Origin: Terriglobia bacterium
GTDB lineage: Bacteria > Acidobacteriota > Terriglobia > Terriglobales > Acidobacteriaceae
Reading direction: 5' to 3'
NCBI GenBank assembly: GCA_020072815.1
Contig: JAIQGE010000010.1
Span: 62,001 to 126,000, forward strand
DNA: 64,000 bases
In this document: positions 16,742 to 32,362 of the stretch, piece by piece
Position numbering within the stretch: position 1 is the stretch's first letter
How the letters are laid out: each line of letters begins with the position of its first letter
Made by a program: the position numbers and the translations under genes
Notes under the pieces: generated by a model
Told to the model about the DNA's origin: nothing
Seen by the model: the letters and a program-made list of their open reading frames with translations, nothing else
Database searches by the model: none

Positions 16742-16802
16742 GAGCTTCCCCGCTGAAACAGGCGGGGCATCTGACGACGAAGGGAGGACGTTTCCTTTTT
16801 TG

Positions 16803-16871: not shown

Positions 16872-16887
16872 CCAAGGAGCAGGGAGA

Positions 16888-17094: not shown

Positions 17095-18401
17095 TGGCCA
17101 AGACTCCTCACCATCTGCGAATGCTGGGCGTCCCCGAGGACTGCGGCCCCGATCGCGCCGTCCCCAGGGTGATCGAGGGATATGTTGGCCCCTACAAAAA
17201 AGAGGCCATGAGTCTCTACTTCAGCAAAATCTTTGCGCGCGCCCTGCCTGAGTGGAACGCGCCTGAGATCCACTTCAGTGAAGTCACCCACGCCCGGCTG
17301 GCAGCGATGAACGGCGTGCGCCGTGAGACTATCAGCCGGCGCATCGGCAAGCTGTCCAGGGGGACAAAGAAATGGGACGAAGCCCAGCGCAGAAAGCGTT
17401 CGATGGAAGAAACCAGGCGCGCGGCCGCGCAGGGCAAGCGAGTGCGGGTTGGGCGCCGCAAGCTGGCGTTGCGATCGCTGGAACCCGTTGCGGAGTTGTT
17501 TGAAGTCACGCCGCGATTCAACGCCCCCAACCTGTACAAAGGCCCCAAGGGCGCCGTGGGCGGCAAGAACGATCCTTGCCGCGCGGCCCGTGACGCCGCT
17601 GAGAAATATGGGACGAAAAATTTTGACTCCACGGCCCACGTCAACGGCTTCAAGCGCATTGACGCCGTCATCTGGCATCCCACCCTGCCCGACGTGGTGC
17701 CCTGTGAATGCAAGATGGGCCAGGCGCGGCTTCCCTTCCAGGGGGAATGCCCCACGTGCGGGGGCAAGGGCAAGGTGTTCAAAGGCTCACTGCCAGATTT
17801 CGGCCGAAACTTTCTCACGCTGCTTCAGATGTGGGGCATTGAAGACGAGATCCCTGAGCTGCGCGACAATGACGACAAGATCGTGCGCAAGCACAAGCCC
17901 GCGGGAATGCTCCAGATCCCGCAGTGGAAGATGGCACAACGCATGGGATGCGACGAAGACACCCTGCGTAAGTATCAGCGAAAAGCTGAGGCCCTGCTGT
18001 TCATCAAGGTTGTGGACGGCGACAAATACGGGGCGTGTCCATCGTGCGCCGGCGGTCCAGTGCTGGCCAAAGCCAAGGTTTGCCCGTCCTGCCACGCCAA
18101 CATTGCCGGCAAGGTGCGCATCACGTCCAGCGATCCCGACAAGATCATCTGGATGCCCGGCCGGCTGATGGAGCACGAGATGTGCCTGGCCGAGCGGCAA
18201 CGCTTCCTGGAGGCCAAGGCGAAGCTGGCAGACCAGTCCGCTGCCTGGAAGGCTGACCAGGTCCACCTGGAGCTGCTGAAGGAATGGGGAGGCAAGGAGC
18301 ACACCCTAAAAGCCTTCTGGAATGAGCTGTACCGTCGTTTTGCTCACCACGGGGTCCCGCGTGACGCGCGCAAGGCCCTTCTACCCTCTTACCTCGAGTG
18401 A
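17094..18401 (+). CDS. Two-HTH, two-zinc-finger DNA-binding protein (candidate replication or transcription initiator)
   Basis: 435 residues. A first winged-helix-like segment at ~75-100 reads VTHARLAAMNGVRRETISRR. A DnaJ-type zinc finger follows at ~205-230 (CECKMGQARLPFQGECPTCGGKG in pieces: PCECKMG and GECPTCGGKG). A second helix-turn-helix lies at ~280-305 (WKMAQRMGCDEDTLRKYQRK), with a second zinc ribbon (ACPSCAGG, KVCPSCHANI) after it. The layout resembles plasmid or phage initiators of the helix-turn-helix type but no nuclease or ATPase motif is present. Last gene of the left operon; terminator directly follows. Function inferred only as DNA binding. Confidence 0.65.
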   Translation: MAKTPHHLRMLGVPEDCGPDRAVPRVIEGYVGPYKKEAMSLYFSKIFARALPEWNAPEIHFSEVTHARLAAMNGVRRETISRRIGKLSRGTKKWDEAQRRKRSMEETRRAAAQGKRVRVGRRKLALRSLEPVAELFEVTPRFNAPNLYKGPKGAVGGKNDPCRAARDAAEKYGTKNFDSTAHVNGFKRIDAVIWHPTLPDVVPCECKMGQARLPFQGECPTCGGKGKVFKGSLPDFGRNFLTLLQMWGIEDEIPELRDNDDKIVRKHKPAGMLQIPQWKMAQRMGCDEDTLRKYQRKAEALLFIKVVDGDKYGACPSCAGGPVLAKAKVCPSCHANIAGKVRITSSDPDKIIWMPGRLMEHEMCLAERQRFLEAKAKLADQSAAWKADQVHLELLKEWGGKEHTLKAFWNELYRRFAHHGVPRDARKALLPSYLE

Positions 18402-18442
18402 TTTGATCCCTTTACACCAGTTTCCTGGCCTGGCACCAGGGA

Positions 18443-18478
18443 GCGCGACGGGAGAGTTGTCCCCGCCGCGCTTTTTTT
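18443..18478 (+). terminator. Intrinsic terminator of the left operon
   Basis: GCGCG (18443-18447) pairs with CGCGC (18467-18471), one A/C mismatch, then CGGG with CCCG. Seven Ts (18472-18478) follow at once. It lies 42 bases after the stop of the regulator gene. Confidence 0.7.
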
Positions 18479-18506
18479 GCGTCCCCGCATGGATGGCTGC
18501 TATACT
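18477..18506 (+). promoter_or_regulatory. Sigma-70-like promoter facing an apparently gene-free region
   Basis: TTGCGT (18477-18482), 18-bp spacer, TATACT (18501-18506). It points right into 18.51-18.98 kb, where I find no convincing frame, and ahead of convergent leftward genes. It could drive an untranslated RNA ending at the hairpin at 18819-18852. Confidence 0.4.
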
Positions 18507-18512
18507 CTAACT

Positions 18513-18850
18513 TTCGCCTATTGTTCTATGGGCAAAAGTTTACCAGGTAGATTCTGGAAAAACGTCCCGGTCGGGCCGATCCCGCCCTCCCCTACCCGTG
18601 GCATCGCCAGGAGCGAATAAAATCCACAGGCCACGGTGAATATTCAAGAACAATGTGCGTTTTCTCGGAGTACGACAGTGCGATCCTTCGCAAACCACGG
18701 TGCGAAAAATCAGAAGTTGGGCGTGCGAAAAACCCTGTCTTCTCTTAGACTTTAGACCTTCAGACCCCTTATCTAGAGTAGTAGCTAGATTTCCTCGCTG
18801 TGCATGGTGTGGAAAGCGGAGCGTCACCAAGAACGTGACGCTCTTTCCCT
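18513..18850 (+). ncRNA. Candidate untranslated RNA in 18.5-18.85 kb gap
   Basis: The gap 18402-18983 holds no supported gene. It is bounded by a promoter-like pair (18477-18506) and an intrinsic-terminator-like hairpin, and contains short direct repeats of GTGCGA (for example GTGCGAAAAA near 18700 and 18723). An RNA of about 330 nt is possible; alternatively the repeats mark a binding region. Low confidence. Confidence 0.25.
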
Positions 18851-18852
18851 TT
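18819..18852. terminator. Hairpin with U-rich tract between convergent operons
   Basis: GAGCGTCAC / GTGACGCTC form a perfect 9-bp stem (18819-18827, 18835-18843) with a 7-base loop, then TTTCCCTTT. Two more hairpins follow (GGGGC/GCCCC at 18853-18865; ACCTCCC/GGGAGGT at 18877-18897). They sit where rightward and leftward transcripts meet. Confidence 0.6.
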
Positions 18853-18983
18853 GGGGCTCCGCCCCAAACCCGCAGAACCTCCCAACGAACGGGAGGTGCA
18901 ATCCAGATGCCACACGGGATAGATCCCACCAGGTCCCACGTGAACGCCGGCGAAGAGCAAAAGCAACCCCAACCCCAAAAACT

Positions 18984-19136
18984 TCAGCCTGCTAAAACCG
19001 CGCGTATGCGTCTAACCCAATCACCCCGGCAACGATCACACAGCCAGGCCCGGCAGAGTTCACACCACTGGACCAGCTTAGATCGCGTATCGTTTTCCAA
19101 CCGCCGGCAGCACTCACACGTTCCAACAATCACCAT
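18984..19136 (-). CDS. 50-residue zinc-finger protein
   Basis: ATG at the complement of 19134-19136, three bases after the stop of the membrane-anchor frame. The protein holds CECC, WCELCRAWLCDRCRGDW and a basic C-terminus (VRRIRAVLAG). The W-C-x-x-C-x-x-W-x-C-x-x-C spacing is a convincing treble-clef or ribbon zinc finger. Its tight spacing to the upstream frame suggests translational coupling. It is the last gene of the leftward operon. Function unknown. Confidence 0.65.
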   Translation of the reverse strand: MVIVGTCECCRRLENDTRSKLVQWCELCRAWLCDRCRGDWVRRIRAVLAG

Positions 19137-19139
19137 GCC

Positions 19140-19334
19140 TCAGTCCAGCAATTCGTCCAGGAGAAAATATCCCCCGATGATCAGCAGCCCGATCCACACC
19201 GGCGCCGGCAGCGAGCTGAGTACAACGCCAGGGTCAACAGTTGCGCTTGCTACTTGGACCTGGCTTAGATCGGGGAAGCCCAGGAGCTGCTGCCCCTGAG
19301 CCGCCGCCCCCTGCAAAGTAGTTTGCAAACACAT
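19140..19334 (-). CDS. C-terminal membrane anchor encoded in +1 frame of the lysozyme gene
   Basis: An open frame ending LPAPVWIGLLIIGGYFLLDE plus LLD: one membrane helix followed by an acidic end. It overlaps the end of the lysozyme frame by about 100 bases in the +1 frame. No ribosome site precedes its only ATG (19334), so independent translation is doubtful. A +1 slip at CCC-C (complement of 19272-19275) would fuse the lysozyme domain to this anchor, giving it the C-terminal helix that many element proteins have. A sequencing indel would give the same picture. Confidence 0.5.
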   Translation of the reverse strand: MCLQTTLQGAAAQGQQLLGFPDLSQVQVASATVDPGVVLSSLPAPVWIGLLIIGGYFLLDELLD

Positions 19335-19716
19335 CGTTGGGGCTTACGCCCAGGAACCCCGTCACGTTGGCCACCCATGCCGCGGAATTGCCCGCGTACT
19401 TTTTCGCGATCTGTGACCAGGTCATTAGCGGCGAGTAGGTGGAACTGGTCCCGTTGACAATGTTTGTGATTTTTTCGCGAAGCGCCTGCCAGCCGCCCTC
19501 TTTGCTGGCGAACACAATCAAAATCTCACCGTCTGGCAGTGTCACGTAGCCAGAGACGGGTTGGCCGTGTTCGTCGCCTTTGCTGAGGTCCCCAGGGTTG
19601 TTGTAGCGATCTGGAGGTGCACCGGGAACGTTGGCGCCCTCTGCCGACGCGATGGCCTGGCAGACGGTCCAGATCAAGTCACCACCAGGCCACGTGCTGG
19701 GATCAAAGGTGATCAT
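19234..19716 (-). CDS. Lysozyme-like peptidoglycan hydrolase
   Basis: 160 residues. AIASAEGANVPGAPPDRYNN continuing PGDL contains the catalytic Glu and the RxNNPG(D/N)L signature of a phage muramidase or transglycosylase family. The rest (GWQALREKITNIVNG, WSQIAKKYAG, VANVTGFLGVSPNDVFANYF) fits the same domain to its usual C-terminal repeat. A Gly-rich linker and SKPGPSSKRNC end the in-frame product; see the +1-frame anchor. No signal peptide, so export would need a holin or a particle. This is the clearest phage-type gene in the element. Confidence 0.75.
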   Translation of the reverse strand: MITFDPSTWPGGDLIWTVCQAIASAEGANVPGAPPDRYNNPGDLSKGDEHGQPVSGYVTLPDGEILIVFASKEGGWQALREKITNIVNGTSSTYSPLMTWSQIAKKYAGNSAAWVANVTGFLGVSPNDVFANYFAGGGGSGAAAPGLPRSKPGPSSKRNC

Positions 19717-19720
19717 GTTT

Positions 19721-20743
19721 CTAGTTGTCCAGCTTTACGTCGTATTCCAGCAGGATGGCCGAGTTGCCGCCGTTGGACGTGGTAAATTTGAACGCGATAT
19801 TTACAAACTCCGCCACCGTTTCATCCACCGCGGCCGATGCGGCCGTCGCAGTGTCCAGGAAGTCAGTACAGCCCACCGCGGTGGTCGCTCCCAGGTTGAT
19901 GCATAGCTGCCCTTTCGCGATAAACGTGCCAGACGCGCCGATGGTGGACGTGGTAGAGAGTGAGCAATCAAACCAGAATTGGCCGTTGGTGAGGTTGTTC
20001 GCCTGGTTCGTGCTGGTGATGGCGCAGCCGGCCGGCGCCACCACAGTGCCAGAGGCGCATCCTGAAACCTGGCACAGCATCAGCTCTGCGTTTAGGACCG
20101 ACGCCGCGGCGTTGGTATAGACCCCACTGCCATGAACCCTGATCTTGCGTGGCGTGATGTTGGCCAGGTTCGCGGGGATCTGTATGTCGCTGGCCGCGGC
20201 CACCAGCGGGGTAAAGTTCGCGGTGGTAATCGGGACTGAAGTCGTGCCCTGGTAGGCGCCCAGGCTGCGCGTGAGGTCCGCGTAAAGCAGCGCCGGCGCC
20301 GGCACAGCGTTAATGTTGCCGGTGATGTCCTGGCTGGCGCCGGCGATCGTGATCTGCCCCGTGGTGAAACACTGAGGCCCTGTGCTGCCAGGGTCCGGGT
20401 AGCTGGTGGTGGGAGCTGAGCAAATCGAAAACTGCCAATGCGTGCTCCCTGGCGTAATCGAACCGTTGGCCATCAACGAAAGCGCGAACTGCCCCGCTGT
20501 GTTAATGGTCACCGGGGACACCGGCGGGATCAGCGGGAAACCCGTTGCGGTCACGCTGGGCGACGCGCCGCCGCTCACGTTGACAAACTGAGGCATGACG
20601 GTCCCGCCCCCATAGGGCACGCCGTTTTTGTCCAGGACCGTCCCGGTGATAGACGTGATGGTTTGCCCCGCGGCCGGCAGGACCGCGGCGAACGAAGCGG
20701 CCACCAGCAATAGCGCGGCCGCAAGAGTTGTTTTGACGCTCAT
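19721..20743 (-). CDS. Sec-exported beta-rich protein (possible spike or fibre)
   Basis: 340 residues. ATG 20743 follows GGAGG at 8 bases. Signal peptide SVKTTLAAALLLVAASFAAV ending AAG-Q. The mature protein begins with a carboxypeptidase-regulatory/CNA-B-like beta domain (ITSITGTVLDKNGVPYGGG). A long Thr/Ala/Gly-rich beta region ends ETVAEFVNIAFKFTTSNGGN then SAILLEYDVKLDN, a pattern seen in beta-sandwich tips of adhesins. Six or more Cys in the mature part fit disulfides formed outside the cytoplasm. A signal peptide on a putative structural protein is unusual for tailed phages. Confidence 0.65.
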   Translation of the reverse strand: MSVKTTLAAALLLVAASFAAVLPAAGQTITSITGTVLDKNGVPYGGGTVMPQFVNVSGGASPSVTATGFPLIPPVSPVTINTAGQFALSLMANGSITPGSTHWQFSICSAPTTSYPDPGSTGPQCFTTGQITIAGASQDITGNINAVPAPALLYADLTRSLGAYQGTTSVPITTANFTPLVAAASDIQIPANLANITPRKIRVHGSGVYTNAAASVLNAELMLCQVSGCASGTVVAPAGCAITSTNQANNLTNGQFWFDCSLSTTSTIGASGTFIAKGQLCINLGATTAVGCTDFLDTATAASAAVDETVAEFVNIAFKFTTSNGGNSAILLEYDVKLDN

Positions 20744-20765
20744 ACTTGTTTCCTCCAAAAAGTTG

Positions 20766-21455
20766 CTATCGTTTCTTTCCCCCGCTGAACATCAACAGCG
20801 CGGCGCCGCCGGCCAGCAGGACCCAGTTGGGGATGCCGCCGATCATGGCGCCCTGCAGCCAGGTGGCGATGGAAGCCATAAAGTCGGCCGGCGCCGGCGC
20901 AGATGTTTGCGCTGGCGTCCCCGTGGTGGTGGAAATAACCAAGCCGGACGGCGTGACCGCCGTGGGCGTGGATGCCGGCGTGGACGCGGGCGATTGCGTC
21001 ACCGCGGGCGCTACGGTGGAAGTGGGAGCGGACGCCGCGGACGGCGTGGCCACGGGAGTGGCGGCCGGCGGGGTGTAAGCGATTGCGGCGCCGCTGGCGT
21101 CGCAATAATGGCTGGACCCGTCCGACATGTTGCACTGGAAAACTCCAGGCGCGACGCTCAGCGTATTGACCAGCGTGACCGTGGCGCCGGTTTGCGTGGA
21201 CACCGGCGTACCCGATGGCGTGACGGCCGGCGTGGGCGCCGATGTGGATGCCGCCGCTTGTGCCGCGGCCCATTTTGCAGCCAAGTCCGCAGGGAGTTGC
21301 TGGCCAAACTGCTGGAGCACGCTTATCTGCGTCGCGTCTGGCGTCTGTGGTGAAAAAGAAAACGATTGCCCCGATGCAGAGATGAACTGATCAGGCAGGA
21401 CCGGGTAGCCCAAGCCCAGCCTCTTGCGCGCGTGAACGTAGCGGCGATGGATCAC
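20766..21455 (-). CDS. Tail-anchored protein with Thr/Pro/Ala linker
   Basis: 229 residues from GTG 21455, which overlaps the previous stop (GTGA) and follows GGGGAG. N-terminus VIHRRYVHARKRLGLGYPVL is basic and shares (R)RLGLG(Y/F) with the 33860-34348 protein. A small domain contains FQCNMSDGSSHYCD. A repetitive linker of about 75 Thr/Pro/Ser/Ala residues leads to the C-terminal helix GGIPNWVLLAGGAALLMFSG and GKKR. The tail belongs to the element's IP(N/D/G) anchor family. Confidence 0.7.
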   Translation of the reverse strand: MIHRRYVHARKRLGLGYPVLPDQFISASGQSFSFSPQTPDATQISVLQQFGQQLPADLAAKWAAAQAAASTSAPTPAVTPSGTPVSTQTGATVTLVNTLSVAPGVFQCNMSDGSSHYCDASGAAIAYTPPAATPVATPSAASAPTSTVAPAVTQSPASTPASTPTAVTPSGLVISTTTGTPAQTSAPAPADFMASIATWLQGAMIGGIPNWVLLAGGAALLMFSGGKKR

Positions 21456-22594
21456 AAGATGCTCCCCTGAACGTCCAGCGTGCCGGTATTTGCGACCCCG
21501 CACGTGGTGAGCTGGACCTGGACCGTGTGTCCCACAGCGCCGGCCAGGCTGGGATTCCATTGGAACCTGAAAGTTGTAGTACCCACCTCAGTTGCTGCGC
21601 TGGTCCACAGGTTCACAGAGGCAGTGGTGTCCACTACCAGGAGCTGAGAGGTTCCGGCGGAACATCTCCCGCTGATCGAAAACACGTGTGCGCGCTGGAA
21701 TACGTTTCCAGCCACCAGAGTGAAAGTCACAGAGGCAGTGGCGTTCACAGCGGTGGTCTCTGCGTTGTTGGTGTTAGCCGGCTGAATCGCGGCCGGCTGA
21801 GCCGCACCAGGCGGGTAAAAGTAGTAATAGCCTGTGTAGTTTCCCGCTCCCGTGCACGAGTTGCATCGCACGCTGATGGCAGTACAAGACATTGCCGGCA
21901 CCGGCAGCAAAGTTGAACCTCCGCCGGTTAGGGTCAGGGACGACTCTGTGCTGACCGCTCCAAAATCAAAGCATCGCGCTACGAGAGTGCCGCCGGTGAA
22001 ATTGGCGGATGCGCTGATTACGATGTAACCCGCGGTTGACCCATAAGGGGAATTGATCGTTGGAGCGGTGATGGTCCCAGATTGTGTCTGCTGGGTAAAA
22101 AGCACTTTTCTGATCTGCTGGCCGGCCCCATAGAGGCCAAAAGGATTTTCCGGGATGGCTGAGGTGCCAACGTAATTGGCCGTGATGGTATCAGCCACGT
22201 CGCACGTCGTACACTTCGCCAGATTCACCCGCAAAAAAGGATAGTTGCCAATGCCAAGGACCAGGCCCTGGGCGTTCTGGCTGATCTCTGTGCCATCATC
22301 GCTGATGGGAAACCATGTACCAGTGACGCAAGTCGCGGAGTCGCTGTTAAAACTGCCTTCCAGTCGAATCTGTACTCCTGTCGGCGCGCCGGTTGCTCCC
22401 GTCTCCTGGTAGAAGAGAAAATGGACGGTCTGCCCCACGTTCGTGATGCAGGGGGATGCGGTAGGAGCACTTACGCCGTTTAGGTTTAGCTGCGTTGCGG
22501 ACGCCGACACGCTCTGTGGGGACACGTTGGTGACCTGGCCCACGGCCGCGGCCGCGGAGAGTAAGAGCAAAATCGAAAGTAGAATCTTTTTCAC
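21452..22594 (-). CDS. Sec-exported beta-rich protein
   Basis: 380 residues with signal peptide MKKILLSILLLLSAAAAVGQ and mature start VTNVSP. The mature chain is Thr/Ser/Ala/Gly-rich with spaced Cys (CTTCDVAD, MSCTAISVRCNSCTGAGNY), predicted all-beta, ending VQLTTCGVANTGTLDVQGSI. No enzymatic motif. It overlaps both neighbours (ATGA and GTGA). Together with the 19721 protein it forms a pair of exported beta proteins around one tail-anchored protein, suggesting a cell-surface or particle-surface assembly. Confidence 0.65.
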   Translation of the reverse strand: MKKILLSILLLLSAAAAVGQVTNVSPQSVSASATQLNLNGVSAPTASPCITNVGQTVHFLFYQETGATGAPTGVQIRLEGSFNSDSATCVTGTWFPISDDGTEISQNAQGLVLGIGNYPFLRVNLAKCTTCDVADTITANYVGTSAIPENPFGLYGAGQQIRKVLFTQQTQSGTITAPTINSPYGSTAGYIVISASANFTGGTLVARCFDFGAVSTESSLTLTGGGSTLLPVPAMSCTAISVRCNSCTGAGNYTGYYYFYPPGAAQPAAIQPANTNNAETTAVNATASVTFTLVAGNVFQRAHVFSISGRCSAGTSQLLVVDTTASVNLWTSAATEVGTTTFRFQWNPSLAGAVGHTVQVQLTTCGVANTGTLDVQGSIL

Positions 22595-22875
22595 GAAGTC
22601 CCCTTTTGGTGTTGCGATCTTTCCCAGAGTCGCCGGCGGATCGCGTCCAACATCAAGCCCACGTCGTCAACCTCTTGGTCGGCTGGGATGTCGTTTTCCT
22701 GGCAGTACCAAATCCAGATGAGCTTGTGTTGCAGCATGAACACGTCCATCTTTTTCTCGAAGCGGCGCATAGTGCGTACCAGCCACACCACCGGCGCCCC
22801 CAGCCCGCCCACCACAGCGATTAATGTGGCGACGAAAGCCAGATAAGGGTTAACGTTGGCCATGAAAGTAGGCAT
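22591..22875 (-). CDS. Single-helix membrane protein (holin-like size)
   Basis: 94 residues. NPYLAFVATLIAVVGGLGAP with VVWLVRTMRRFEKK forms one N-terminal helix and a basic stop, then a soluble helical tail (MLQHKLIWIWYCQENDIPAD...). Length and topology suit a class III holin or anchor, and it is near the lysozyme gene, but sequence alone does not prove it. Start ATG overlaps the previous stop (TGATG). Confidence 0.55.
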   Translation of the reverse strand: MPTFMANVNPYLAFVATLIAVVGGLGAPVVWLVRTMRRFEKKMDVFMLQHKLIWIWYCQENDIPADQEVDDVGLMLDAIRRRLWERSQHQKGTS

Positions 22876-23333
22876 CACCAGATCGAATCCTCAGTTGCGC
22901 GCCACTTGGGGTAAAACCATCCGCTGAGCCGCCCGCCGGCCTGCACTCCGCCCGCGGCCAGGCTCACGTTGGAGACTTGCAGCACCACGAGTTGCTGTTC
23001 GTACACCAGGATGCCAGCCGTCTCTGCTGGATTGTTCACCGCGCCCAGGCTGGCCAGGATGTTGTCGTAATTGCGAATCACTCCCGCGTTGGCCAGGATC
23101 TGCCAGATCAGCGAGCCGGACCCTTCAGTCCAGCCGCCGCCCACGATCACGTTGCCCACGCGCTTGATTACGCCGTGGAAGCCCTCGGGCACAGTGAACG
23201 TGACCACTACGCCGCTGGCCGCGATCACCGGCAGCGCGATATAGCTGGTGTAGTCAAAGGCCAGGCCGTCTGGAGGCATCCACAGATGCGCCGGCAGAGA
23301 GATTTCTTGCGGCAAAATTGTTTGGCTACTCAT
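22875..23333 (-). CDS. Beta-sandwich structural-type protein (GWFYPK family)
   Basis: 152 residues, no signal peptide. VVVTFTVPEGFHGVIKRVGN, then GGGWTEGSGSLIWQILANAG, then a C-terminal LSGWFYPKW. Alternating strands with conserved-looking Gly/Trp turns suggest a single beta-sandwich (jelly-roll-like) domain. It lies in a run of three similar-sized proteins. I cannot name a characterised homologue; a role as capsid, penton or adaptor is inference. Confidence 0.55.
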   Translation of the reverse strand: MSSQTILPQEISLPAHLWMPPDGLAFDYTSYIALPVIAASGVVVTFTVPEGFHGVIKRVGNVIVGGGWTEGSGSLIWQILANAGVIRNYDNILASLGAVNNPAETAGILVYEQQLVVLQVSNVSLAAGGVQAGGRLSGWFYPKWRATEDSIW

Positions 23334-23835
23334 CCACGCACCCCGCGATCACGACCTGAACGCCGTTGGCGCTGGCCTGTAAATTCTGAATTCTCACCAG
23401 GATGGTGTGGCCGGCGTGGAAGCGGTAAGGCTTACGCAGGGAAAAAGGATGCCGCGCACTGCCCCCAAAATTCACGTCGTTAACGCCCACGATCGAAAAC
23501 CGTTTTCCCTTCCCTGGCTGAGTGGACATGTCGCGGATCTGCACGCGGCATCCTGGGTTGGCCCCGGTCCCGCCCACCGTGGTAGAAACCATCAGCGTGT
23601 GAGCGAGAAAGTCCGACTGGCAGACCTGGCGCAGTTCCACCCACTGATTGGCGGGAATGGTCACGTCGCCCGCGGCGCCGCCAAACACTTGCCAGAAGGG
23701 ACGCCGGCCGCGCATCTGCCGGCGATCGCGCAAGCTGGGCACATACGCCCGGCTGGCCAGCTTGGCAGTGGATAGCCACAACCCCAGCGCGTGACGCCGC
23801 GGTCCCTTGAAGCGGTCCTGATTCCAGATGCTCAT
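23326..23835 (-). CDS. Beta-sandwich structural-type protein, paralogue of 24234 protein
   Basis: 169 residues. A basic N-terminal arm of about 50 residues (FKGPRRHALGLW, RDRRQMRGRRPF) precedes a beta domain starting VTIPANQWVELRQVCQSDFL and ending HPFSLRKPYRFHAGHTILVR and ANGVQVVIAGCVDE. The end aligns with the neighbour: PF(S/P)L..PY.(F/W)......(I/V)...N.VQ(V/L)V(I/L).G. Basic arm plus beta-sandwich is a layout known from capsid proteins that touch nucleic acid; here that is inference only. Confidence 0.55.
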   Translation of the reverse strand: MSIWNQDRFKGPRRHALGLWLSTAKLASRAYVPSLRDRRQMRGRRPFWQVFGGAAGDVTIPANQWVELRQVCQSDFLAHTLMVSTTVGGTGANPGCRVQIRDMSTQPGKGKRFSIVGVNDVNFGGSARHPFSLRKPYRFHAGHTILVRIQNLQASANGVQVVIAGCVDE

Positions 23836-24191
23836 GTCAGCCTGTCCACCTGTGCCTGGTAGTGCTGCGCTATCCGCGTGTGCAGCGAGTTGACAGCCTG
23901 CGACTGTTCAGGCTGTTTGAACTTCTTAAACCAGCCATCATTCGCGGCCAGTGTGTTCACCTGGGCAGGCGTAAGCTGTGCCGCGGCCATACCCTGGGCC
24001 GTGGACAGCAACGCTTGCACGTCGGCCTTGGTGCGAATATCCTGCGCGGCCACGATCTGTTGTTTATCGTGGTCCCGGTTGCCAGGATGCTGGACCAGGA
24101 CCAGGCGTGTGACCGGGTCCAGCACTTTGGCGTAGATCCAGTGGTCCACGCCGTCAGTCTGTCTGATCTGGACAATGTCCCCTGCGTTCAT
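23832..24191 (-). CDS. Hypothetical protein, SH3-like N-terminus
   Basis: 119 residues. MNAGDIVQIRQTDGVDHWIY with AKVLDPVTRLVLVQHPG looks like a small SH3-type barrel. The rest is helical (VQALLSTAQGMAAAQLTPAQ, SLHTRIAQHYQAQVDRL). It overlaps the beta-sandwich gene (ATGA). No family recognised. Confidence 0.55.
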   Translation of the reverse strand: MNAGDIVQIRQTDGVDHWIYAKVLDPVTRLVLVQHPGNRDHDKQQIVAAQDIRTKADVQALLSTAQGMAAAQLTPAQVNTLAANDGWFKKFKQPEQSQAVNSLHTRIAQHYQAQVDRLT

Positions 24192-24233
24192 AAAAAGTTC
24201 TCCCTCTCCTCGCGAAGTTCAGGCCGCGGGGGG

Positions 24234-24767
24234 TTATGCCTTGACGATCGCGCCCTGGCTGCCTTGCGCCGGATTGTCCCGCGGGTAGAGCTTGTAGCCA
24301 CGAAGCACCAGTTGGATCGTGTTGCCCGCGTTGGAACGATCTGTAAAGCTGGCCCGGACCACTGAAGACCTGGCCCACACGTAAGGCTCTACCAGCGGGA
24401 AAGGCAATTGCGCCGTGCCGGCAAAGTTCTCGCCGTTCACGTTGGTAGTGGAAAGATTCCTGCCGGTGGAAGGATCGAGCAGCGACACAGAGTAAATCCC
24501 GGTAGAGTTGGCCACGGTAAAGACCCATTCAAAGTCCGCGTCCTGGTCAATCTGCTGCTGGACAGGCAAGCCGGCCTGCAGGGCGGTAAGGACCGCGTTG
24601 GGCAATACCAGGTCATAAGGCACGCGAATGGGCTGTTGCTGGATCACGCCGTTGCCCTGGCAATTGGGACAAGTCTGGAAACCGCCGCGGCCGGTGGGCA
24701 GTGCGCCCTTCCCTTTGCAGGTGGGGCAGGTCACGCCGGCTGCCAGTGCTGATGGTGTGGTGGACAT
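24234..24767 (-). CDS. Zinc-finger plus beta-sandwich protein
   Basis: 177 residues from ATG 24767. Residues ~10-35 are a DnaJ-type zinc finger (TCPTCKGKGALPTGRGGF then QTCPNCQGNG). From ~45 a beta domain runs YDLVLPNAVLTALQ, FEWVFTVANSTGIYSVSLLD, and ends AQLPFPLVEPYVWARSSVVR, NTIQLVLRGYKLYP. Its last 50 residues align with the 23326 protein, so the two are paralogues. A CxxCxGxG finger at the head of a structural-type domain is odd, and the same finger type occurs in the 17094 regulator. Confidence 0.6.
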   Translation of the reverse strand: MSTTPSALAAGVTCPTCKGKGALPTGRGGFQTCPNCQGNGVIQQQPIRVPYDLVLPNAVLTALQAGLPVQQQIDQDADFEWVFTVANSTGIYSVSLLDPSTGRNLSTTNVNGENFAGTAQLPFPLVEPYVWARSSVVRASFTDRSNAGNTIQLVLRGYKLYPRDNPAQGSQGAIVKA

Positions 24768-24805
24768 AAATGTCTTTTTCCTCAAATCTCAAAAGAGTCT
24801 GCAAA

Positions 24806-24830
24806 CTCCAGGGCCTTACCGGCCCTGGAG
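24806..24830. terminator. GC-rich hairpin between genes
   Basis: CTCCAGGGCC / GGCCCTGGAG, perfect 10-bp stem with loop TTACC, just downstream (leftward) of the 24844-25686 gene and before the 24767 start. The T-tract is weak on either strand; likely a terminator or attenuator. Confidence 0.5.
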
Positions 24831-24843
24831 CTAAAGCGTTTTC

Positions 24844-25686
24844 TTAAAAGCCAGCAGCGGCGATCGCCGCGTCTGGGTTTTTGTAGCCCATGCTGAGCAA
24901 TTCCTGGCGCGCGTAATCGCGGTTCAAGAATTGACGCATCTCATCGCGTGACACGTGCGCGATCTTGGGCATGGCCTTCACCTGTTTACTGTTGGCGTGC
25001 TGCTGCAAAATCCCCAGCGTCACGTGCAAGCCGGTGCTAAACAAGGCGATCCACATGGACGCCTTTTGTTGCGCGATGGGATTTTTGATTTTCAGCGTAG
25101 CGAGCGCGGCCTGGTCCACCTGCGCGGTGAACGCATCGGCCCCGTTCAGCAACGCCTGGTAGGCATCTGCGCCTGGGTTGGCCAGGTAGGTGTCGCACGC
25201 CGCGGTGAGCTTATCCAGCGCCGGCCCGGCGCCATCCACCAGAGGCTGGAGAACGCCGGCAATGTCGGGATCTAAAACCCGCACCTCTCCGACAATCATC
25301 TGCGCCTGGGGCAGCAAAGCCTTGGCAGTCTTTAGCCCGCCCTCTACCCGCTGGACCGCGGCCACGGTTTGGGCCTGGCTATACGTGCAGCCCGTTGTGG
25401 CGATTGGCACAACGATCAGCGCAGCGCACAGGAATAAAGATAGGCTGGACTTGGCCACGTTCGCCGCGGAAGGCAGCGCGCCGGGCGACGGCATCCAGTG
25501 ATTGAAGATCGCGCCGGTGGCCACCACGACCGTGGACCACGCGGGATGCGTCGTCACGAACTGGACAAGGTATTTTTGTATCTCAGGAGAGAGCGCGGTG
25601 AGCACCGTCCCCAGCAATGGCAGCAAAGATGGAAGCAGCTTCTTGAAATTCGCGTTTCGGGTTCTCCCGGCCGCAAAAGCGGCCAA
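24844..25686 (-). CDS. Membrane protein with internal lipobox-like segment
   Basis: 280 residues if the TTG at 25686 is used; no ATG is available early, so the start is uncertain. Two hydrophobic parts occur: LLPSLLPLLGTVLTALSPEI, and SLSLFLCAALIVVPIATTGC, the latter ending in a lipobox-like TTGC. A helical region (LKTAKALLPQAQMIVGE...) and YARQELLSMGYKNPDAAIAA end it. The internal lipobox suggests that the true start may be further in, giving a lipoprotein of about 200 residues. Function unknown. Confidence 0.5.
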   Translation of the reverse strand: MAAFAAGRTRNANFKKLLPSLLPLLGTVLTALSPEIQKYLVQFVTTHPAWSTVVVATGAIFNHWMPSPGALPSAANVAKSSLSLFLCAALIVVPIATTGCTYSQAQTVAAVQRVEGGLKTAKALLPQAQMIVGEVRVLDPDIAGVLQPLVDGAGPALDKLTAACDTYLANPGADAYQALLNGADAFTAQVDQAALATLKIKNPIAQQKASMWIALFSTGLHVTLGILQQHANSKQVKAMPKIAHVSRDEMRQFLNRDYARQELLSMGYKNPDAAIAAAGF

Positions 25687-25710
25687 TTTCGGCCATTTCT
25701 TAAGCCCTGG

Positions 25711-25740
25711 GCGCCCGGCGCAAACGTTTGCGCCGGGCGC
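25711..25740. repeat. 30-bp perfect palindrome containing the element's repeated site
   Basis: Half-site GCGCCCGGCGCAAAC is followed by its exact complement; TTTTGGGGG follows on the plus strand. Its centre (GGCGCAAACGTTTGCGCC) is the best copy of a palindrome that recurs across the element. It may act as terminator for rightward RNA, or as a protein-binding site between the 25755 gene and its downstream neighbour. Confidence 0.75.
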
Positions 25741-25754
25741 TTTTGGGGGTTGTC

Positions 25755-26492
25755 TTACTGCACGGCGCGGAACAGTGTGCCGTCCAGGAACACGTGGCTG
25801 TAGATCCCGGTGCCCGCGATCGGGGTGCCAGGAGCCGCTACGACGTTCGCGGTGGTGAAGGGCGCGGCCGTCACGTTGCTGATGGTGGGGTCAATCACGC
25901 AGTTGAACTGCTGCTGCTGCTCGATTGGCACTCCGCCGTAAGCCAGCGTGTAGGTGTTGCGCGCGTCCGGCCAGCCGTTCGCGGTCAGCGAATAGCCGTT
26001 GGTCGCGGCAAACGTGCCCATCATGGACGCGAATGCCCCGCCGCCGGCCGGCAGCCGTCCAACGATGGTGTCCTGGTAGCTCTTCCCGTTCACGTTGAAT
26101 TGGAAGAAGCATTCCATGTACTTTTCCAGATCGTTGCCGACTACGTTGCCCTCAGTGAACACGCTGATAGCGCGAACAATGTGCTTGTTGGGCGCCTGCA
26201 ACACTCCGGCCAGGATCTGGCTGGTGTGCGCCGGCGTTTTCACAAAGCCAGCGACGCCGCCAAAGTTGTACGTCTGCCCTTGCGGGACAGCGAACAGCGT
26301 CAGCTTGACGGTGGCCGTGTTGAGCGCGACCGCGTAGATGTCATAGAGGGCCTGGGTGATTCCTTCCAGGTAGCCCGCCATGATGGGGTTTTTCCGGCGA
26401 AGCCGGGGACGCCCCAGGTCGAACCCTTCCAGTTCAGGCAGGTGCGCGAACTTGCGCGATGCTTGCTTGGTTTGGCGATTGGTTGCTCTCAT
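25755..26492 (-). CDS. Candidate major structural (capsid-type) protein
   Basis: 245 residues from ATG 26492 with AGGAGGTG before it. A basic N-terminal arm (RATNRQTKQASRKF, RPRLRRKNPIMAGY) is followed by an all-beta-looking domain: VKLTLFAVPQGQTYNFGGVA, IVRAISVFTEGN, ECFFQFNVNGKSYQDTIVGR, YTLAYGGVPIEQQQQFNCVI and GTGIYSHVFLDGTLFRAVQ. It stands alone between the palindrome and a strong ribosome site, suggesting high expression. The RRKNP motif recurs in other element proteins. Capsid identity is a hypothesis from length, composition and position only. Confidence 0.5.
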   Translation of the reverse strand: MRATNRQTKQASRKFAHLPELEGFDLGRPRLRRKNPIMAGYLEGITQALYDIYAVALNTATVKLTLFAVPQGQTYNFGGVAGFVKTPAHTSQILAGVLQAPNKHIVRAISVFTEGNVVGNDLEKYMECFFQFNVNGKSYQDTIVGRLPAGGGAFASMMGTFAATNGYSLTANGWPDARNTYTLAYGGVPIEQQQQFNCVIDPTISNVTAAPFTTANVVAAPGTPIAGTGIYSHVFLDGTLFRAVQ

Positions 26493-26637
26493 CTCTAACA
26501 CCTCCTTCTGAGAGACTCAAATTCGCCAAATGCAAAAACTCTAAAAACTCTCCAGTCTCGGGACCGCGCAACCGACCGATGCGCGATCCAGCGAGGGATA
26601 AAGGCCCATACTCAAAGCGAGGACGTGGCGGAGCCGC

Positions 26638-27372
26638 CTAAGCGGCCCAGCGCGAACCCCAACGGGTTGGCTCGTCTGACGCCGCTCCCGGCAGTGCCGC
26701 CGGCGCTGCTGCTGCCGCGGCCAGTTGCGCCGCGGTGGACTGCGCCGCGGACTGGACCGAAGGCATAGGCGAGCCGCTGTAGCCAGGATTCAGCAGGTAA
26801 GGACCCTGCCCTGACGTAGGCAGCGGGAATGAGTTTTCGATGTAATAACCCATGTCCCCGCTCAGACCGATCGGGAAACTGGACCCGAAGAAATTGTTAA
26901 AGATCCTCAGACCCGTCGCGATCAGACCGCCGGCCAGGAAGTGCGCGCCGGCTTGCGGACCGGCAAACTTGCCAACCAACTGGCCGCCGATGAAGGCGGT
27001 CGCGCCGTTCAGCACATAGCCGATAACGCCAGTGTTGTACTGAGCGGCCACCAGGCCAGGAGCTGCGAGCGAGCCGACTGCGCCGGCCGTGCCCCACAGC
27101 AGAAGCCCGCCGATTTCGCGAATGCTGCCTGCCCCGCCTGGATTACGACGGCGCCGGAAGCTCTTGCGATGCCTCGCTCCGCCAAACCCAAACGGGTTTG
27201 AACGGCGGTGACTCGTGCGCCGGTGATGCGTGTTGCCAATCCGGCGGTGAGACTTTCTCTTTTTCGCCACGATAAAAACACCCCCTCCCCCGCTGAGCTT
27301 TTGGCCTCTCGGCTTGTGAACGCGCCGGCGAAGGCCGCGCCCTGAACTTGGATTAACGACTCTGATCTTCAT
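26638..27372 (-). CDS. Basic N-terminus plus Gly/Ala-rich membrane protein
   Basis: 244 residues. The first 75 are extremely basic (KKRKSHRRIGNTHHRRTSHR, RKSFRRRRNPGG). Then come hydrophobic Gly/Ala-rich segments (GGLLLWGTAGAVGSLAAPGL, VIGYVLNGATAFIGGQLVG, FLAGGLIATGLRIFNNFFG) and an Ala/Gln/Pro tail. A second in-frame start (GTG 27270 after GGGAGGGGG) could yield a shorter form. The layout, DNA-binding arm plus membrane helices, would suit a protein linking nucleic acid to a membrane. It contains RRRRNP. Gap 26493-26637 upstream of the next gene holds no frame. Confidence 0.6.
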   Translation of the reverse strand: MKIRVVNPSSGRGLRRRVHKPRGQKLSGGGGVFIVAKKRKSHRRIGNTHHRRTSHRRSNPFGFGGARHRKSFRRRRNPGGAGSIREIGGLLLWGTAGAVGSLAAPGLVAAQYNTGVIGYVLNGATAFIGGQLVGKFAGPQAGAHFLAGGLIATGLRIFNNFFGSSFPIGLSGDMGYYIENSFPLPTSGQGPYLLNPGYSGSPMPSVQSAAQSTAAQLAAAAAAPAALPGAASDEPTRWGSRWAA

Positions 27373-27446
27373 AAAATTGCCCCTTTAAATTCGATTGCAG
27401 GCGTCCCTGGCCTTTTTCAGGTCTTACCCCACGCGCACAACTTCAA

Positions 27447-27653
27447 TCACTTACGCCGGCGCCGCGCCTTGCTTTTCTTTGCCACTGGCAAGCCAGCGCG
27501 CCTGGTGCGACCGCGACGCGCGGGATTGCGTTTCTTCTTTTTCCCGCGGCCGCGCGTGGACTTAAACTCAAACTTCAGCCCCGCGGCCTTCAGCGCCTTG
27601 CGTATGCCGCGCGCCTCGCTCGGGTTCTTTGCAACGATGGTCCTGGCTTTCAT
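27447..27653 (-). CDS. Small very basic protein
   Basis: 68 residues, nearly 40% Lys/Arg: GRGKKKKRNPARRGRTRRAG and VAKKSKARRRRK. N-terminal MKARTIVAKNPSEARGIRKA could be a short alpha/beta unit. Likely nucleic-acid condensing; contains the element's KRNPARR version of the basic-NP motif. Confidence 0.6.
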   Translation of the reverse strand: MKARTIVAKNPSEARGIRKALKAAGLKFEFKSTRGRGKKKKRNPARRGRTRRAGLPVAKKSKARRRRK

Positions 27654-27660
27654 GCTCTCC

Positions 27661-28275
27661 TCACCCCGCTCTGTCTATGCGATACCTTCCGCCGAAAAAG
27701 AATGCTTGCCCGGTGTCCTGGTCAATCAGCAACTCCATCTGCGTTCCCGTTCCCGGCGCGCCGGCGCACTGTGCGATCCAGCCCTCTGCCAGCCCTTCTG
27801 GCCTGATGAGGATCTGCGCCACGGGACCAAAGACCAGAAACCGCGTGCCCTTCAATTGCCCGCGCGCGCGATCGCCCAGCTCTTGCTTGATCATCGGCGC
27901 CGCTGGCGGGACGTAATCGCCGGTGACCTGCGCCGCGGTGGGAATTGGCGGGACCCACGCGGGATCTGGAATATCAGGTAGGCCCACTCTGCCATCCGCA
28001 CGAACGATTGGGTCCAGCAGCAGCAGCGTGCTGCGGTCCTTGGTTTGTGCGATCCGCGGCATCAGGCTCTGGCCTTTTTGTCCTGTCCCGTAAAACTCCA
28101 AACGCACGCCTAAGCTGTTGGCGACTGCTGCGCTGGGCAGCGCGGCGCCTTGCGACGCCTCCAGTACGATCACCCACGCGCGGCCGATCAGCTCATAGTC
28201 GTTGTGCAGAATTCTGTCTTGTTGCCAGCTCAGCGTGCTGGCCGGCGAGTCCATCGTGCCCTGTGAAGTACCCAT
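27661..28275 (-). CDS. Hypothetical protein with shared C-terminal GG.YR motif
   Basis: 204 residues, soluble. LHNDYELIGRAWVIVLEASQ, VRLEFYGTGQKGQS and LLLLDPIVRADGRVGLPD suggest an alpha/beta or beta domain. Its last 25 residues (MELLIDQDTGQAFFFGGRYR then IDRAG) match the end of the 30224 protein (PRLVFDKLTKQVLFVGGSYR then VEAPG). The shared C-terminal hairpin may be a docking or sorting tag. No known family. Confidence 0.55.
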   Translation of the reverse strand: MGTSQGTMDSPASTLSWQQDRILHNDYELIGRAWVIVLEASQGAALPSAAVANSLGVRLEFYGTGQKGQSLMPRIAQTKDRSTLLLLDPIVRADGRVGLPDIPDPAWVPPIPTAAQVTGDYVPPAAPMIKQELGDRARGQLKGTRFLVFGPVAQILIRPEGLAEGWIAQCAGAPGTGTQMELLIDQDTGQAFFFGGRYRIDRAG

Positions 28276-28278
28276 TTC

Positions 28279-28464
28279 TCAGATCCTCGCTTTCTTCCAC
28301 TTCGCCAGCTCGCGCTGTGCGTTGCGTAGCTCTTTCTCCTGGTCCTTGACCATTCCCCTTGCCTGCGCCAGCCTTTCCTTCTTGCCCTGGACCTTCGCGC
28401 GCAGCTCACGGAGAAATAGCCTGCGTTGTTTCTTTTTTCCCGCGAGCGTGAGGACTGGTGGCAT
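28279..28464 (-). CDS. Small coiled-coil basic protein
   Basis: 61 residues: MPPVLTLAGKKKQRRLFLRE then LRAKVQGKKERLAQARGMVK, an uninterrupted charged helix likely to form a coiled coil. It ends directly before the next gene on the operon (stop 28279, next start 28275). Confidence 0.55.
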   Translation of the reverse strand: MPPVLTLAGKKKQRRLFLRELRAKVQGKKERLAQARGMVKDQEKELRNAQRELAKWKKARI

Positions 28465-29478
28465 CTAAAACACCCCCAGCAGTTTTGCCGCTGCCAACCC
28501 GCCCACGCCCCAGATCACGATCGCCGGCAAACCAGTGGACGCGGCGAGCTGGTCCACCAGTGAAGCCGCGGCGCCAACTGGATTGCTTGTGATTGAAGGC
28601 GCGCCACCAGCCGTGATTGCGTTGCCGCTGGCGTCACATGGCCAGGTGCGGCCTTCGTTCTTCCCAAACGTGGTGTAGTGCGTCCAGGCCCCGGCCGGTC
28701 CGCCCGCCGTCCCCATGCCGGGGTCCGCGGCCACGTCGGGATAAAGTTTCCAGTAGGCTTGTGCGCACGCCAGCGACGCCTGCGCCGGCAGCATGGCCGC
28801 GTATGTAGCTTTTCTTTTCGCGATCACGCCGCGGGCCTCCGCCAAAATGAAGCACGCCGCGTTGCAGTGGCTGGAGTCCTGTTTCAGAATAGGGCTTACG
28901 TTCTGCTGCAAATCTGAATACAGTTTGTCCAGCGACGGCCCCGCCTGCGCCGCGGTGATCACTCCCTGCTGGACCGCCTGGTCAATCACGCTCAGCGAGT
29001 CATTGATCGCCTGGACCACAGCGCAGATGATCTGCTGCTCTTGCTTCACCTTAGCCGCGTGGTGGGCGAAGATGGCGCCAAAGACTTCCAACACTCCGCC
29101 CACGGCCAGAACGACCGGCGCCAGCGGCCCGGTTGCGCCCGCGGCGATCGCCGTTGTGGCCCAGGAGACGGCCGCGCTGCCACCCGCGCTAGTGATAAGC
29201 GCCGCTTTGCTCGGCCCGATGACGCCTGAGCAATTCTCCGCGGTGTAGAGCGCGCCTTGCGACATGGCTTGCTGTACAACCTGCTGCACGTTGGCCGCGG
29301 CCGGCGCGCCAGACTGCCCCGCAAAAACCTGCTGCAAGATCGTGGCATCGTCGCCCAGGCGAGTGTGACGCCGGCGCGCAACGCGGCGCGCGGGGAGCGG
29401 CTGCGCCCCAGGGGGGTAAGACCCCAGCGGCAACGGGCGCCGGCCTAGATCGTTCGTGGTTGGAGTCTGAACGTACAT
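28465..29478 (-). CDS. Tail-anchored protein with PDV...EGR repeat domain
   Basis: 337 residues from ATG 29478. N-terminus MYVQTPTTNDLGRRPLPLGS carries the N(D)LG(R)RP tag shared with two other element proteins. A Gly/Ala-rich helical region with two hydrophobic stretches (GPLAPVVLAVGGVLEVFGAI) follows. Near residue 260 comes YWKLYPDVAADPG and WTHYTTFGKNEGRTW, matching the (N/Y)PDV...HY...G..EGR unit found in exported RTX-like and surface proteins. The C-terminal helix is GLPAIVIWGVGGLAAAKLLG. No signal peptide. Confidence 0.6.
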   Translation of the reverse strand: MYVQTPTTNDLGRRPLPLGSYPPGAQPLPARRVARRRHTRLGDDATILQQVFAGQSGAPAAANVQQVVQQAMSQGALYTAENCSGVIGPSKAALITSAGGSAAVSWATTAIAAGATGPLAPVVLAVGGVLEVFGAIFAHHAAKVKQEQQIICAVVQAINDSLSVIDQAVQQGVITAAQAGPSLDKLYSDLQQNVSPILKQDSSHCNAACFILAEARGVIAKRKATYAAMLPAQASLACAQAYWKLYPDVAADPGMGTAGGPAGAWTHYTTFGKNEGRTWPCDASGNAITAGGAPSITSNPVGAAASLVDQLAASTGLPAIVIWGVGGLAAAKLLGVF

Positions 29479-29485
29479 CGGGCGC

Positions 29486-29734
29486 TTAGGGTTCGACCTC
29501 CAGCAGTTTGGGCTTTGCCTGCTCTGCCGGCGTGCGGGGTTCGAGTTGGTCCGCGGGAAACATGACCAAGCTGCCTTCCATCGAATGCCCAGACGGGTGA
29601 TCGCTGCCAGTGATGCGGCATACAAAGTTGTCGGCATCAGGCAGGCCCTCATGGGACACTACTTGTGCGGGCACGCCGGCCAGGTGTGGCGCTGTGATGG
29701 TGACCAGGTCGCCGCGTTTGAATTTCTCTTCCAT
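29486..29734 (-). CDS. Small SH3-like protein
   Basis: 82 residues from ATG 29734 (AAAGGAGCGAATC before it). EEKFKRGDLVTITAPHLAGV, VPAQVVSHEG and FVCRITGSDH look like a short barrel of the KOW/SH3 kind. Longer in-frame start at 29791 overlaps nothing but lacks a ribosome site. Confidence 0.55.
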   Translation of the reverse strand: MEEKFKRGDLVTITAPHLAGVPAQVVSHEGLPDADNFVCRITGSDHPSGHSMEGSLVMFPADQLEPRTPAEQAKPKLLEVEP

Positions 29735-29753
29735 GATTCGCTCCTTTAGCCCT

Positions 29754-32350: not shown

Positions 32351-32362
32351 AAAGGAAAGCCC

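What the first reader, a model, noticed from the sequence alone, without database searches (positions are those of the whole stretch)
22875..24767. Paralogous beta-sandwich proteins, one fused to a DnaJ-type zinc finger
The last ~50 residues of the 23326 and 24234 products align (PF(S/P)L..PY.(F/W)......(N).VQ(V/L)V(I/L).G). One has a basic arm, the other a CxxCxGxG zinc finger in front. With the 22875 product they form a run of three similar-sized beta proteins, as expected for capsid, penton or spike subunits derived by duplication.
Basis: partly seen in the sequence, partly recalled or inferred. Interest (0 to 1): 0.68.

Follow-up and report, generated by a model that had tools for sequence, protein, structure and literature searches.

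The report
Jelly-roll capsid paralogs in acidobacterial provirus
Two of the three flagged genes are duplicated copies of a likely virus-shell protein inside an apparently undescribed kind of tail-less virus lodged in acidobacterial chromosomes; in some relatives such copies are joined in one protein, a step long debated in the origin of a major class of virus shells.

Summary
The paralogy is real: the 23326 and 24234 products match at 38.9 bits (2000 shuffles: at most 25.4) and their families at E 3e-16. 24234 carries half of a DnaJ-type zinc finger. The 22875 product shows no significant sequence relation. AlphaFold2 models 24234 as a single jelly roll (pLDDT 68); helvetiavirus capsid chains are among its best matches, tied with unrelated jelly rolls.

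The genes lie in a 27.1-kb provirus (11007-38118) at the host dif site; a same-genus genome shows the empty site. Seven elements, two of them IMG/VR virus contigs, keep the order capsid candidate (25755) - B1 (24234) - B2 (23326). No tailed-phage structural genes and no packaging ATPase were recognised in the window element; one relative has a HerA-like ATPase. In four relatives B1-type domains occur as tandem pairs in one frame.

Best reading: an undescribed group of tail-less temperate viruses of Acidobacteriota with a shell of single-jelly-roll paralogs, probably packaged without an ATPase of its own. The capsid role is inferred; spike or penton roles remain open. Not filed in a known family.

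The parts
11007..38118 (.). provirus (element), 27.1 kb
   Evidence: 18-bp direct repeat at both ends, two copies in the genome, empty site in G153
10996..11023 (+). dif-like attachment site, complete (left)
   Evidence: same arrangement in G023 (L060 8268)
38101..38118 (+). right attachment half-site (core and one arm)
   Evidence: same arrangement in G023 (L012 14055)
24234..24767 (-). B1: zinc finger plus jelly-roll domain, capsid or vertex subunit candidate
23326..23835 (-). B2: paralogue of B1 with basic arm in place of the finger
22875..23333 (-). B3: conserved neighbour, penton or vertex candidate (inferred), no sequence relation to B1/B2
   Evidence: homologues in 5 elements
25755..26501 (-). 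main capsid protein candidate (248 aa)
   Evidence: found next to or near B1 in relatives; model poor
26638..27372 (-). conserved protein with strongly basic N-terminal part, upstream of the capsid candidate; DNA-condensing candidate (inferred)
27447..27653 (-). very basic 68-aa protein (29 Lys/Arg)
23832..24191 (-). 119-aa gene between B2 and B1, unknown
24844..25686 (-). 280-aa gene between B1 and the capsid candidate, one hydrophobic segment
21452..22594 (-). exported protein candidate, family conserved downstream of B3
30224..31879 (-). C30224: conserved C-terminal domain with basic N-terminal part
   Evidence: 9 elements
35265..36338 (-). transglutaminase-like protein
   Evidence: PF01841 E 3.6e-6; 11 elements
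19234..19716 (-). transglycosylase-like lysis or entry enzyme candidate (weak hits)
   Evidence: PHROG E 1.6e-4
14650..16434 (+). ParB-like protein
17094..18401 (+). HTH and zinc-ribbon protein, replication or regulation candidate
   Evidence: homologue in G023

Best explanation
The genes belong to a dif-integrated provirus of an undescribed group of tail-less viruses of Acidobacteriota. 24234 (B1) and 23326 (B2) are ancient duplicates of one single-jelly-roll (SJR) domain and, with the 25755 product (main capsid candidate), most likely build the shell from several SJR subunits; 22875 (B3) would be a vertex protein. B1's zinc finger sits at the N-terminus, where it could clamp the subunit to a neighbour or to the inner side. 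As no packaging ATPase was recognised in the window element and strongly basic proteins are encoded just upstream of the capsid gene, the DNA is probably condensed with protein and enclosed, as in SPV1, rather than pumped in. Integration uses the host's XerC/XerD at dif. Shown: boundaries, empty site, paralogy, conserved gene order, tandem forms in relatives. Predicted: B1 fold. Inferred: capsid role, membrane, packaging mode, use of XerCD.
For: Paralogy. Fold of B1: pLDDT 68.1, pTM 0.57, eight strands in 47-161; VIA-align over the domain: SH1 6qt9_C Z 9.2 (112 aligned, rmsd 2.9), HHIV-2 6h82_A Z 8.8, HCIV-1 6h9c_A Z 8.7. Order capsid candidate - B1 - B2 in 7 elements (window, G023, L025, L026, G648, G686, G841; small genes lie between in some), B3 after it in 5 of them. 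Two are IMG/VR virus contigs of 36.8 and 37.4 kb. dif insertion in window and G023; empty site in G153, flanking proteins 80-86% identical. No portal, terminase, tail or HK97 capsid hit in PHROGs for 30 of the 31 element genes that I listed. In the window element the only Walker-A match is in one ORF not counted as a gene. Basic proteins; hydrophobic segments.
Against: B1's structural matches are tied with cellular and other jelly rolls (PHM 1yi9 Z 9.5, satellite panicum mosaic virus 8.9, nucleoplasmins 8.0-9.0), Foldseek's best is Kex2 and many viral matches are phage proteins of unknown role or tail fibres, so the fold does not prove a capsid role. The 25755 model is poor (pLDDT 46). B1/B2 were not found by profile in G358 and G373, which have the capsid candidate. 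One element (G023) has a HerA-like ATPase with a terminase PHROG hit, and Walker-like motifs without Pfam support occur in two proteins of the virus contig G877. No virion, expression or induction data.
Confidence: 0.62

Rival explanations
1. B1, B2 and B3 are spike, vertex or decoration proteins of the same tail-less virus, and only 25755 (or another gene) makes the lattice.
For: Copy number and fusion of B1-type domains vary between relatives, as expected of host-contact proteins; B1/B2 not found in G358 and G373; matches of the B1 model to tail-fibre and decoration-type domains (9rkv_M Z 8.1 and 9f4b_F2 Z 8.7; 7eel_H).
Against: B1 is kept directly after or near the capsid candidate in the 11 elements with B1-type genes downstream of it plus G061, with a slowly changing PF.L..PY core.
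Confidence: 0.27
2. The real capsid protein is a double jelly roll (FLiP- or Odin-like virus); the 25755 product or tandem proteins are diverged DJR proteins.
For: FLiP and the Odin group also lack packaging ATPases (PMC5894146, PMC8812541, passages); tandem forms exist in four relatives; 25755-type proteins of 290-330 aa in G691, G734, G698.
Against: The window protein is 248 aa with about 60 N-terminal residues outside the strands of its (poor) model, which aligns with single barrels; no tandem B1 form in the window.
Confidence: 0.08
3. A non-virion mobile element whose jelly-roll proteins form a surface or carbohydrate-binding complex.
For: Two exported-type proteins; cellular jelly rolls tie in the fold comparison; no virion data.
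Against: Relatives in IMG/VR contigs, dif insertion like known phages (PMC9966536, passages), basic proteins, transglycosylase-like genes.
Confidence: 0.08

Closest known systems
Helvetiavirae / Halopanivirales (SH1, HHIV-2, HCIV-1, P23-77, SNJ1)
   Same: Single-jelly-roll proteins; the B1 model aligns over its domain with chains of SH1, HHIV-2 and HCIV-1; genome size near that of sphaerolipoviruses (28-31 kb, PMC12643093, whole text); membrane-type proteins; bacterial members (P23-77).
   Different: No sequence relation found; no packaging ATPase recognised in the window element; B1 has a zinc finger; dif integration; tandem forms in relatives; host phylum.
Portogloboviridae (SPV1)
   Same: SJR shell proteins, no packaging ATPase (PMC8812541, passages), nucleoprotein core and inner lipid layer (PMC8459092, whole text) that the basic and hydrophobic proteins here would fit; the poor 25755 model aligns with SPV1 6oj0_A at Z 6.3.
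   Different: Archaeal host; circular 20-kb genome; no sequence relation found; nothing about integration at dif in the text read.
NO16-like tail-less vibriophages (Asemoviridae)
   Same: Tail-less temperate virus at dif, thought to use host XerCD (PMC9966536, passages).
   Different: Placed in Tectiliviricetes; here SJR-type proteins; host phylum.
Odin group and FLiP (DJR viruses without packaging ATPase)
   Same: No packaging ATPase; ParB-family gene in Odin (PMC5894146, passages).
   Different: Small genomes and a DJR capsid protein by definition; the window capsid candidate looks single-barrelled (low confidence).

Membership tests
Halopanivirales (Helvetiavirae) | two vertical single-jelly-roll major capsid proteins | tested here: inconclusive
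   B1 modelled as one jelly roll, VIA Z 8.7-9.2 to three members, tied with non-members; 25755 model unreliable; orientation not testable
Halopanivirales (Helvetiavirae) | FtsK-HerA superfamily packaging ATPase | tested here: not met
   Window element ORFs of 70 aa or more: one Walker-A match, in ORF 18540-18929, not counted as a gene. The HerA-like protein of G023 has no match in G000 or in the two whole virus records (2 of 13 records match, G023 itself and a weak short match in G691)
Halopanivirales (Helvetiavirae) | internal membrane with virus-coded membrane proteins | tested here: inconclusive
   hydrophobic segments in 9 to 10 of 31 listed genes, two of them C-terminal with basic tails; lipid not testable
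Halopanivirales (Helvetiavirae) | sequence relation to members | tested here: inconclusive
   no PHROG or Pfam hit for 22875, 23326, 25755 beyond chance; no phage-record hit for L026's capsid candidate and B3 or the window's B2
Portogloboviridae | SJR shell proteins and no packaging ATPase | tested here: inconclusive
   ATPase not recognised; SJR predicted for B1 at moderate confidence only
Portogloboviridae | nucleoprotein core of DNA and nucleocapsid protein | not testable with these tools
   basic conserved proteins are only suggestive
[quoted passage not shown]
   window 25755 model too poor; tandem B1 proteins of G575, G691, G734, G698 not folded
Caudoviricetes | HK97-type capsid protein, portal, large terminase, tail genes | tested here: not met
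   30 of 31 listed element genes against PHROGs: none; nearest are weak hits of 19234 to endolysin and tail-injection transglycosylase families
DnaJ cysteine-rich domain (PF00684) | four CxxCxGxG motifs (number recalled) | tested here: not met
   two motifs, 24.1 bits against a cut-off of 32.7
XerCD-dif integrating elements | insertion at the host dif site with core and one arm repeated, empty site in relatives | tested here: met
   dependence on XerCD not tested; likeness to E. coli dif is recalled

The most novel reading that the evidence does not exclude
These elements are a new virus lineage, order level or above, in which one SJR capsid domain exists as single genes, as duplicated neighbouring genes (B1, B2) and, in four members, as in-frame tandem pairs: three such ORFs in a row in G575, one each in G691, G734 and G698. 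They would be a living record of the step from single to double jelly-roll shells, perhaps taken more than once, in tail-less temperate bacterial viruses that package DNA without an ATPase.
Probability: 0.45. Interest if true: 0.88.

Novelty: new variant of a known kind. Interest (0 to 1): 0.7.

Why it matters
Double-jelly-roll capsid proteins were thought to come from fusion of two single jelly rolls; a 2022 study argued instead for a cellular double-barrel ancestor (PMC8812541, passages). A virus group in which related jelly-roll domains occur as single genes, as duplicated neighbours and as in-frame pairs makes the fusion route testable. It also adds tail-less temperate viruses to Acidobacteriota: in the one acidobacterial virome paper looked at (PMC11924767, passages) the two larger provirus groups were classed as Caudoviricetes.

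Tried and rejected
IMG/VR hits L003, L004, L005 and L007 match only the finger; L006 matches over 13-155 at 26% but its genes read like a tailed phage (by eye): none taken as relatives. Of the 15 of 399 genomes matched by the B1 profile, 8 (G124, G025, G046, G868, G870, G667, G678, G721) match the finger part only and were dropped; 7 remain. G543 (E 0.003) shares no other element gene and was dropped. L057 and L058 match 36 residues around the finger and were dropped.

25755 against B1: best score of its control set and in register, but E 0.015 and 0.033, so only a hint. The two small proteins after the capsid candidate in G358 and G373 show no relation to B1-B3. Phage-record hits of 25755 (23 records) are rII proteins at E 0.02-0.05: chance. 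Viral scans with A4 and A18 gave no relative. PDB sequence profiles of 22875, 25755 and 23326 families: nothing below E 0.1. BFVD's best hit is unnamed. Rfam over 10000-39000 and ARAGORN: none. A packaging ATPase as core gene was expected from helvetiaviruses and not found. Three 14-bp repeats seen beside the 18-bp one were taken as chance.

Not in print, as far as searched: listings showed no paper on SJR or tail-less proviruses of Acidobacteriota; the library holds open-licence papers only.

Full report
Observation. The three genes exist as described, on the minus strand, with a fourth small gene (23832-24191) between 23326 and 24234. The products of 23326 and 24234 are paralogous: 31% identity over 59 residues, 38.9 bits, against a maximum of 25.4 bits in 2000 shuffles; a search of the own genome finds one with the other at E 4.1e-4; family profiles match at E 5.3e-11 and 1.9e-10, and with 12 and 7 domain sequences at 3e-16 and 4.6e-18. 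In that last test the other 34 ordered comparisons among B1, B2, B3, the capsid candidate and six further families gave E 0.015 or worse. The 22875 family does not match B1, B2 or the capsid candidate significantly. The 24234 product carries two CxxCxGxG motifs, like half of a DnaJ cysteine-rich domain; in its clade (window, G023, G061, L025, L026) both pairs are present in 5 of 5 sequences, while in the more distant relatives the profile matches begin at position 43 or later, behind the finger.

Surroundings. The genes lie in a block between miaB (9179-10633, name from its sequence, recalled) followed by a 105-aa ORF, and an ABC-type permease gene (38163-40955, likewise). An 18-bp direct repeat bounds the block at 11007 and 38101 and has only these two copies in the genome. 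The left copy is part of a 28-bp dif-like site. With two mismatches the site was found in 3 of 41 genomes, the own one included. One of them, G153 of the same genus, has miaB, the 105-aa ORF, the site and the permease gene side by side: the empty site. G023's element shows the same pattern at the same place, full site left, half site right, 35.8 kb apart. No integrase was recognised in the window element, while the two virus contigs, G358 and G373 have tyrosine recombinases.

Relatives. Searches: 25755 product in the family, 3 of 200 genomes, own included; three-sequence profile in the phylum, 5 of 396, one later dropped; B1 profile in the class, 15 of 399, of which 7 match the jelly-roll part; seven-sequence capsid-candidate profile in the class, 9 of 399. 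IMG/VR gave two contigs of 36.8 and 37.4 kb. In all I describe 15 elements: 13 bacterial genomes (G000, G023, G061, G299, G358, G373, G575, G648, G686, G691, G698, G734, G841) and two virus contigs. Among the first 13 of these, BLAST groups contain the transglutaminase-like protein in 11, C30224 in 9, the 26638 family, the capsid candidate and B1 in 8 each, a transglycosylase in 6 and the 22875 family in 5. By profile the capsid candidate is seen in all 15, but most of them served to find or to build the profile; G691, G698 and G734 did not serve to build it. No match at E 0.01 in 50,697 phage records for L026's capsid candidate, L026's 22875-family protein and the window's 23326 product; none in plasmids for the first. 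The 24234 product was not run against those records.

The run and its variants. The order capsid candidate - B1 - B2 holds in the window, G023, L025, L026, G648, G686 and G841, with other small genes between in several (in the window 24844-25686 and 23832-24191); the 22875 family follows in the window, G023, L025, L026 and G648. G061's 3-kb contig ends soon after B1. In G575 the capsid candidate is followed by a 99-aa ORF and three ORFs of 339, 348 and 295 aa, each with two B1-type matches (weak in the first), and in G691, G734 and G698 by one ORF of 464, 459 and 460 aa with two matches each. Some single-domain E-values in G734 are weak (0.025 for its second copy). In a tree of 24 domains B2 forms one group (87/88) over window, G023, the virus contigs, G648, G686 and G841, so the B1/B2 duplication appears older than these elements; G575's C halves group (87/89), two of its three N halves group (93/86), and G691's two halves and a neighbouring ORF group (100/99), the halves matching each other at 148 bits. 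Long branches and weak deep forks (69/68) leave open whether pairing happened once or more often. G358 and G373 have the capsid candidate, the transglutaminase-like protein and the 26638 family but no B1/B2 by profile; G299's contig stops after the capsid gene.

Fold. AlphaFold2 of 24234 with nine sequences: pLDDT 68.1, pTM 0.57, strands 47-54, 58-60, 67-72, 78-88, 92-98, 123-131, 136-143, 149-161. VIA-align: PHM 1yi9 Z 9.5, SH1 6qt9_C 9.2 (112 aligned, rmsd 2.9), satellite panicum mosaic virus 8.9, HHIV-2 6h82_A 8.8, HCIV-1 6h9c_A 8.7, FBNSV 8.6, nucleoplasmins 8.0-9.0; which virus protein those chains are is not said in the call. Foldseek: best E 1.4e-4, Kex2; in viral models many phage proteins of unknown role and some tail fibres. 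Reading: a jelly roll, family not resolved. The 25755 model has pLDDT 46; its list (PHM 6.6, P23-77 VP16 6.6, SPV1 6.3, P23-77 VP17 5.9) is only a hint. 22875 and 23326 were not folded.

How it probably works. The virus integrates at dif, probably with host XerCD, as proposed for NO16 vibriophages (PMC9966536, passages). The late block (19.2-36.3 kb, mostly minus strand) codes for the jelly-roll proteins, basic proteins (26638 family: net +26 to +44 in the first 110 residues in six of seven members, +8 in the seventh; 27447: 29 Lys/Arg of 68), proteins with hydrophobic segments, two of which (20766, 34345) end in a segment with basic tail, two exported-type proteins (19721, 21452) and a transglycosylase-like protein. 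The only Walker-A match among window element ORFs of 70 aa or more is in ORF 18540-18929, not counted as a gene; G023 has a HerA-like protein, and two proteins of contig G877 have Walker-like motifs without Pfam support. SPV1 and FLiP lack packaging ATPases (PMC8812541, passages) and SPV1 keeps its DNA as a nucleoprotein core (PMC8459092, whole text). I infer condensation-driven packaging inside a membrane-lined SJR shell. The role of the zinc finger is a guess.

Comparison. Not filed under Halopanivirales, because the packaging ATPase was tested and not met; it may still work like an SJR virus of that kind. Not Caudoviricetes: 30 of 31 listed genes gave no portal, terminase, HK97 or tail hit. 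DJR membership is inconclusive. Verdict: observation partly confirmed, interpretation partly supported; the larger finding is the virus group with duplicated and tandem jelly-roll genes.

Noticed in passing
window 30224-31879, 26638-27372, 24844-25686 and others; L021, L023, L012: A basic residue (K, R or H) within three positions before Asn-Pro recurs: 36 in 31 element proteins against a shuffled mean of 6.6 (maximum 15 of 200); 30 host proteins of the window 16 against 6.6 (maximum 16); G023 16 against 3.8; G358 13 against 2.3; G299 12 against 2.0. Possibly a cleavage or sorting signal.
   Followed up: partly
window 35265-36338 and homologues in 10 further elements: Transglutaminase-like protein with conserved GDC, His and Asp and a hydrophobic, basic-tailed C-terminus in most; the most widely kept gene; cross-linker or protease candidate.
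   Followed up: partly
window 20766-21560, 33860-34348, 34345-35325: Shared C-terminal segment with GGKK or KGKRR tail (BLASTP E 2.3e-4 and 4.6e-4).
   Followed up: no
window 27661-28275 and 30224-31879: Possible shared C-terminal module (BLASTP E 0.006).
   Followed up: no
window 29754-30224: HNH endonuclease-like gene (PHROG E 9.5e-6), with homologues in G686 and G841.
   Followed up: no
L012 722-1591: Another protein with several CxxC motifs (PF00684 E 0.0018, below cut-off): DnaJ-type fingers recur in this group.
   Followed up: no
L011 441-2258 (G023 element): 606-aa HerA-like ATPase, DUF87 E 2.5e-4, terminase PHROG E 3e-11, matched only weakly elsewhere (G691).
   Followed up: partly
L023 937-2460; L049 4-1956; L051 16035-17495: Replication-type genes near the elements differ: Rep_1, Prim-Pol, DnaB; whether all lie inside the elements was not checked.
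   Followed up: no
L048 12198-15776: 1193-aa protein with thioredoxin domains downstream of the jelly-roll genes of G575.
   Followed up: no
L073 2411-3454; L073 342-1556; L072 7837-8931: TnpB/IS605-type gene, DNA methylase and DUF5131 protein in IMG/VR contig G877.
   Followed up: no
window 19721-20758 and 21452-22594: Two proteins with signal-peptide-like N-termini in the late block.
   Followed up: no
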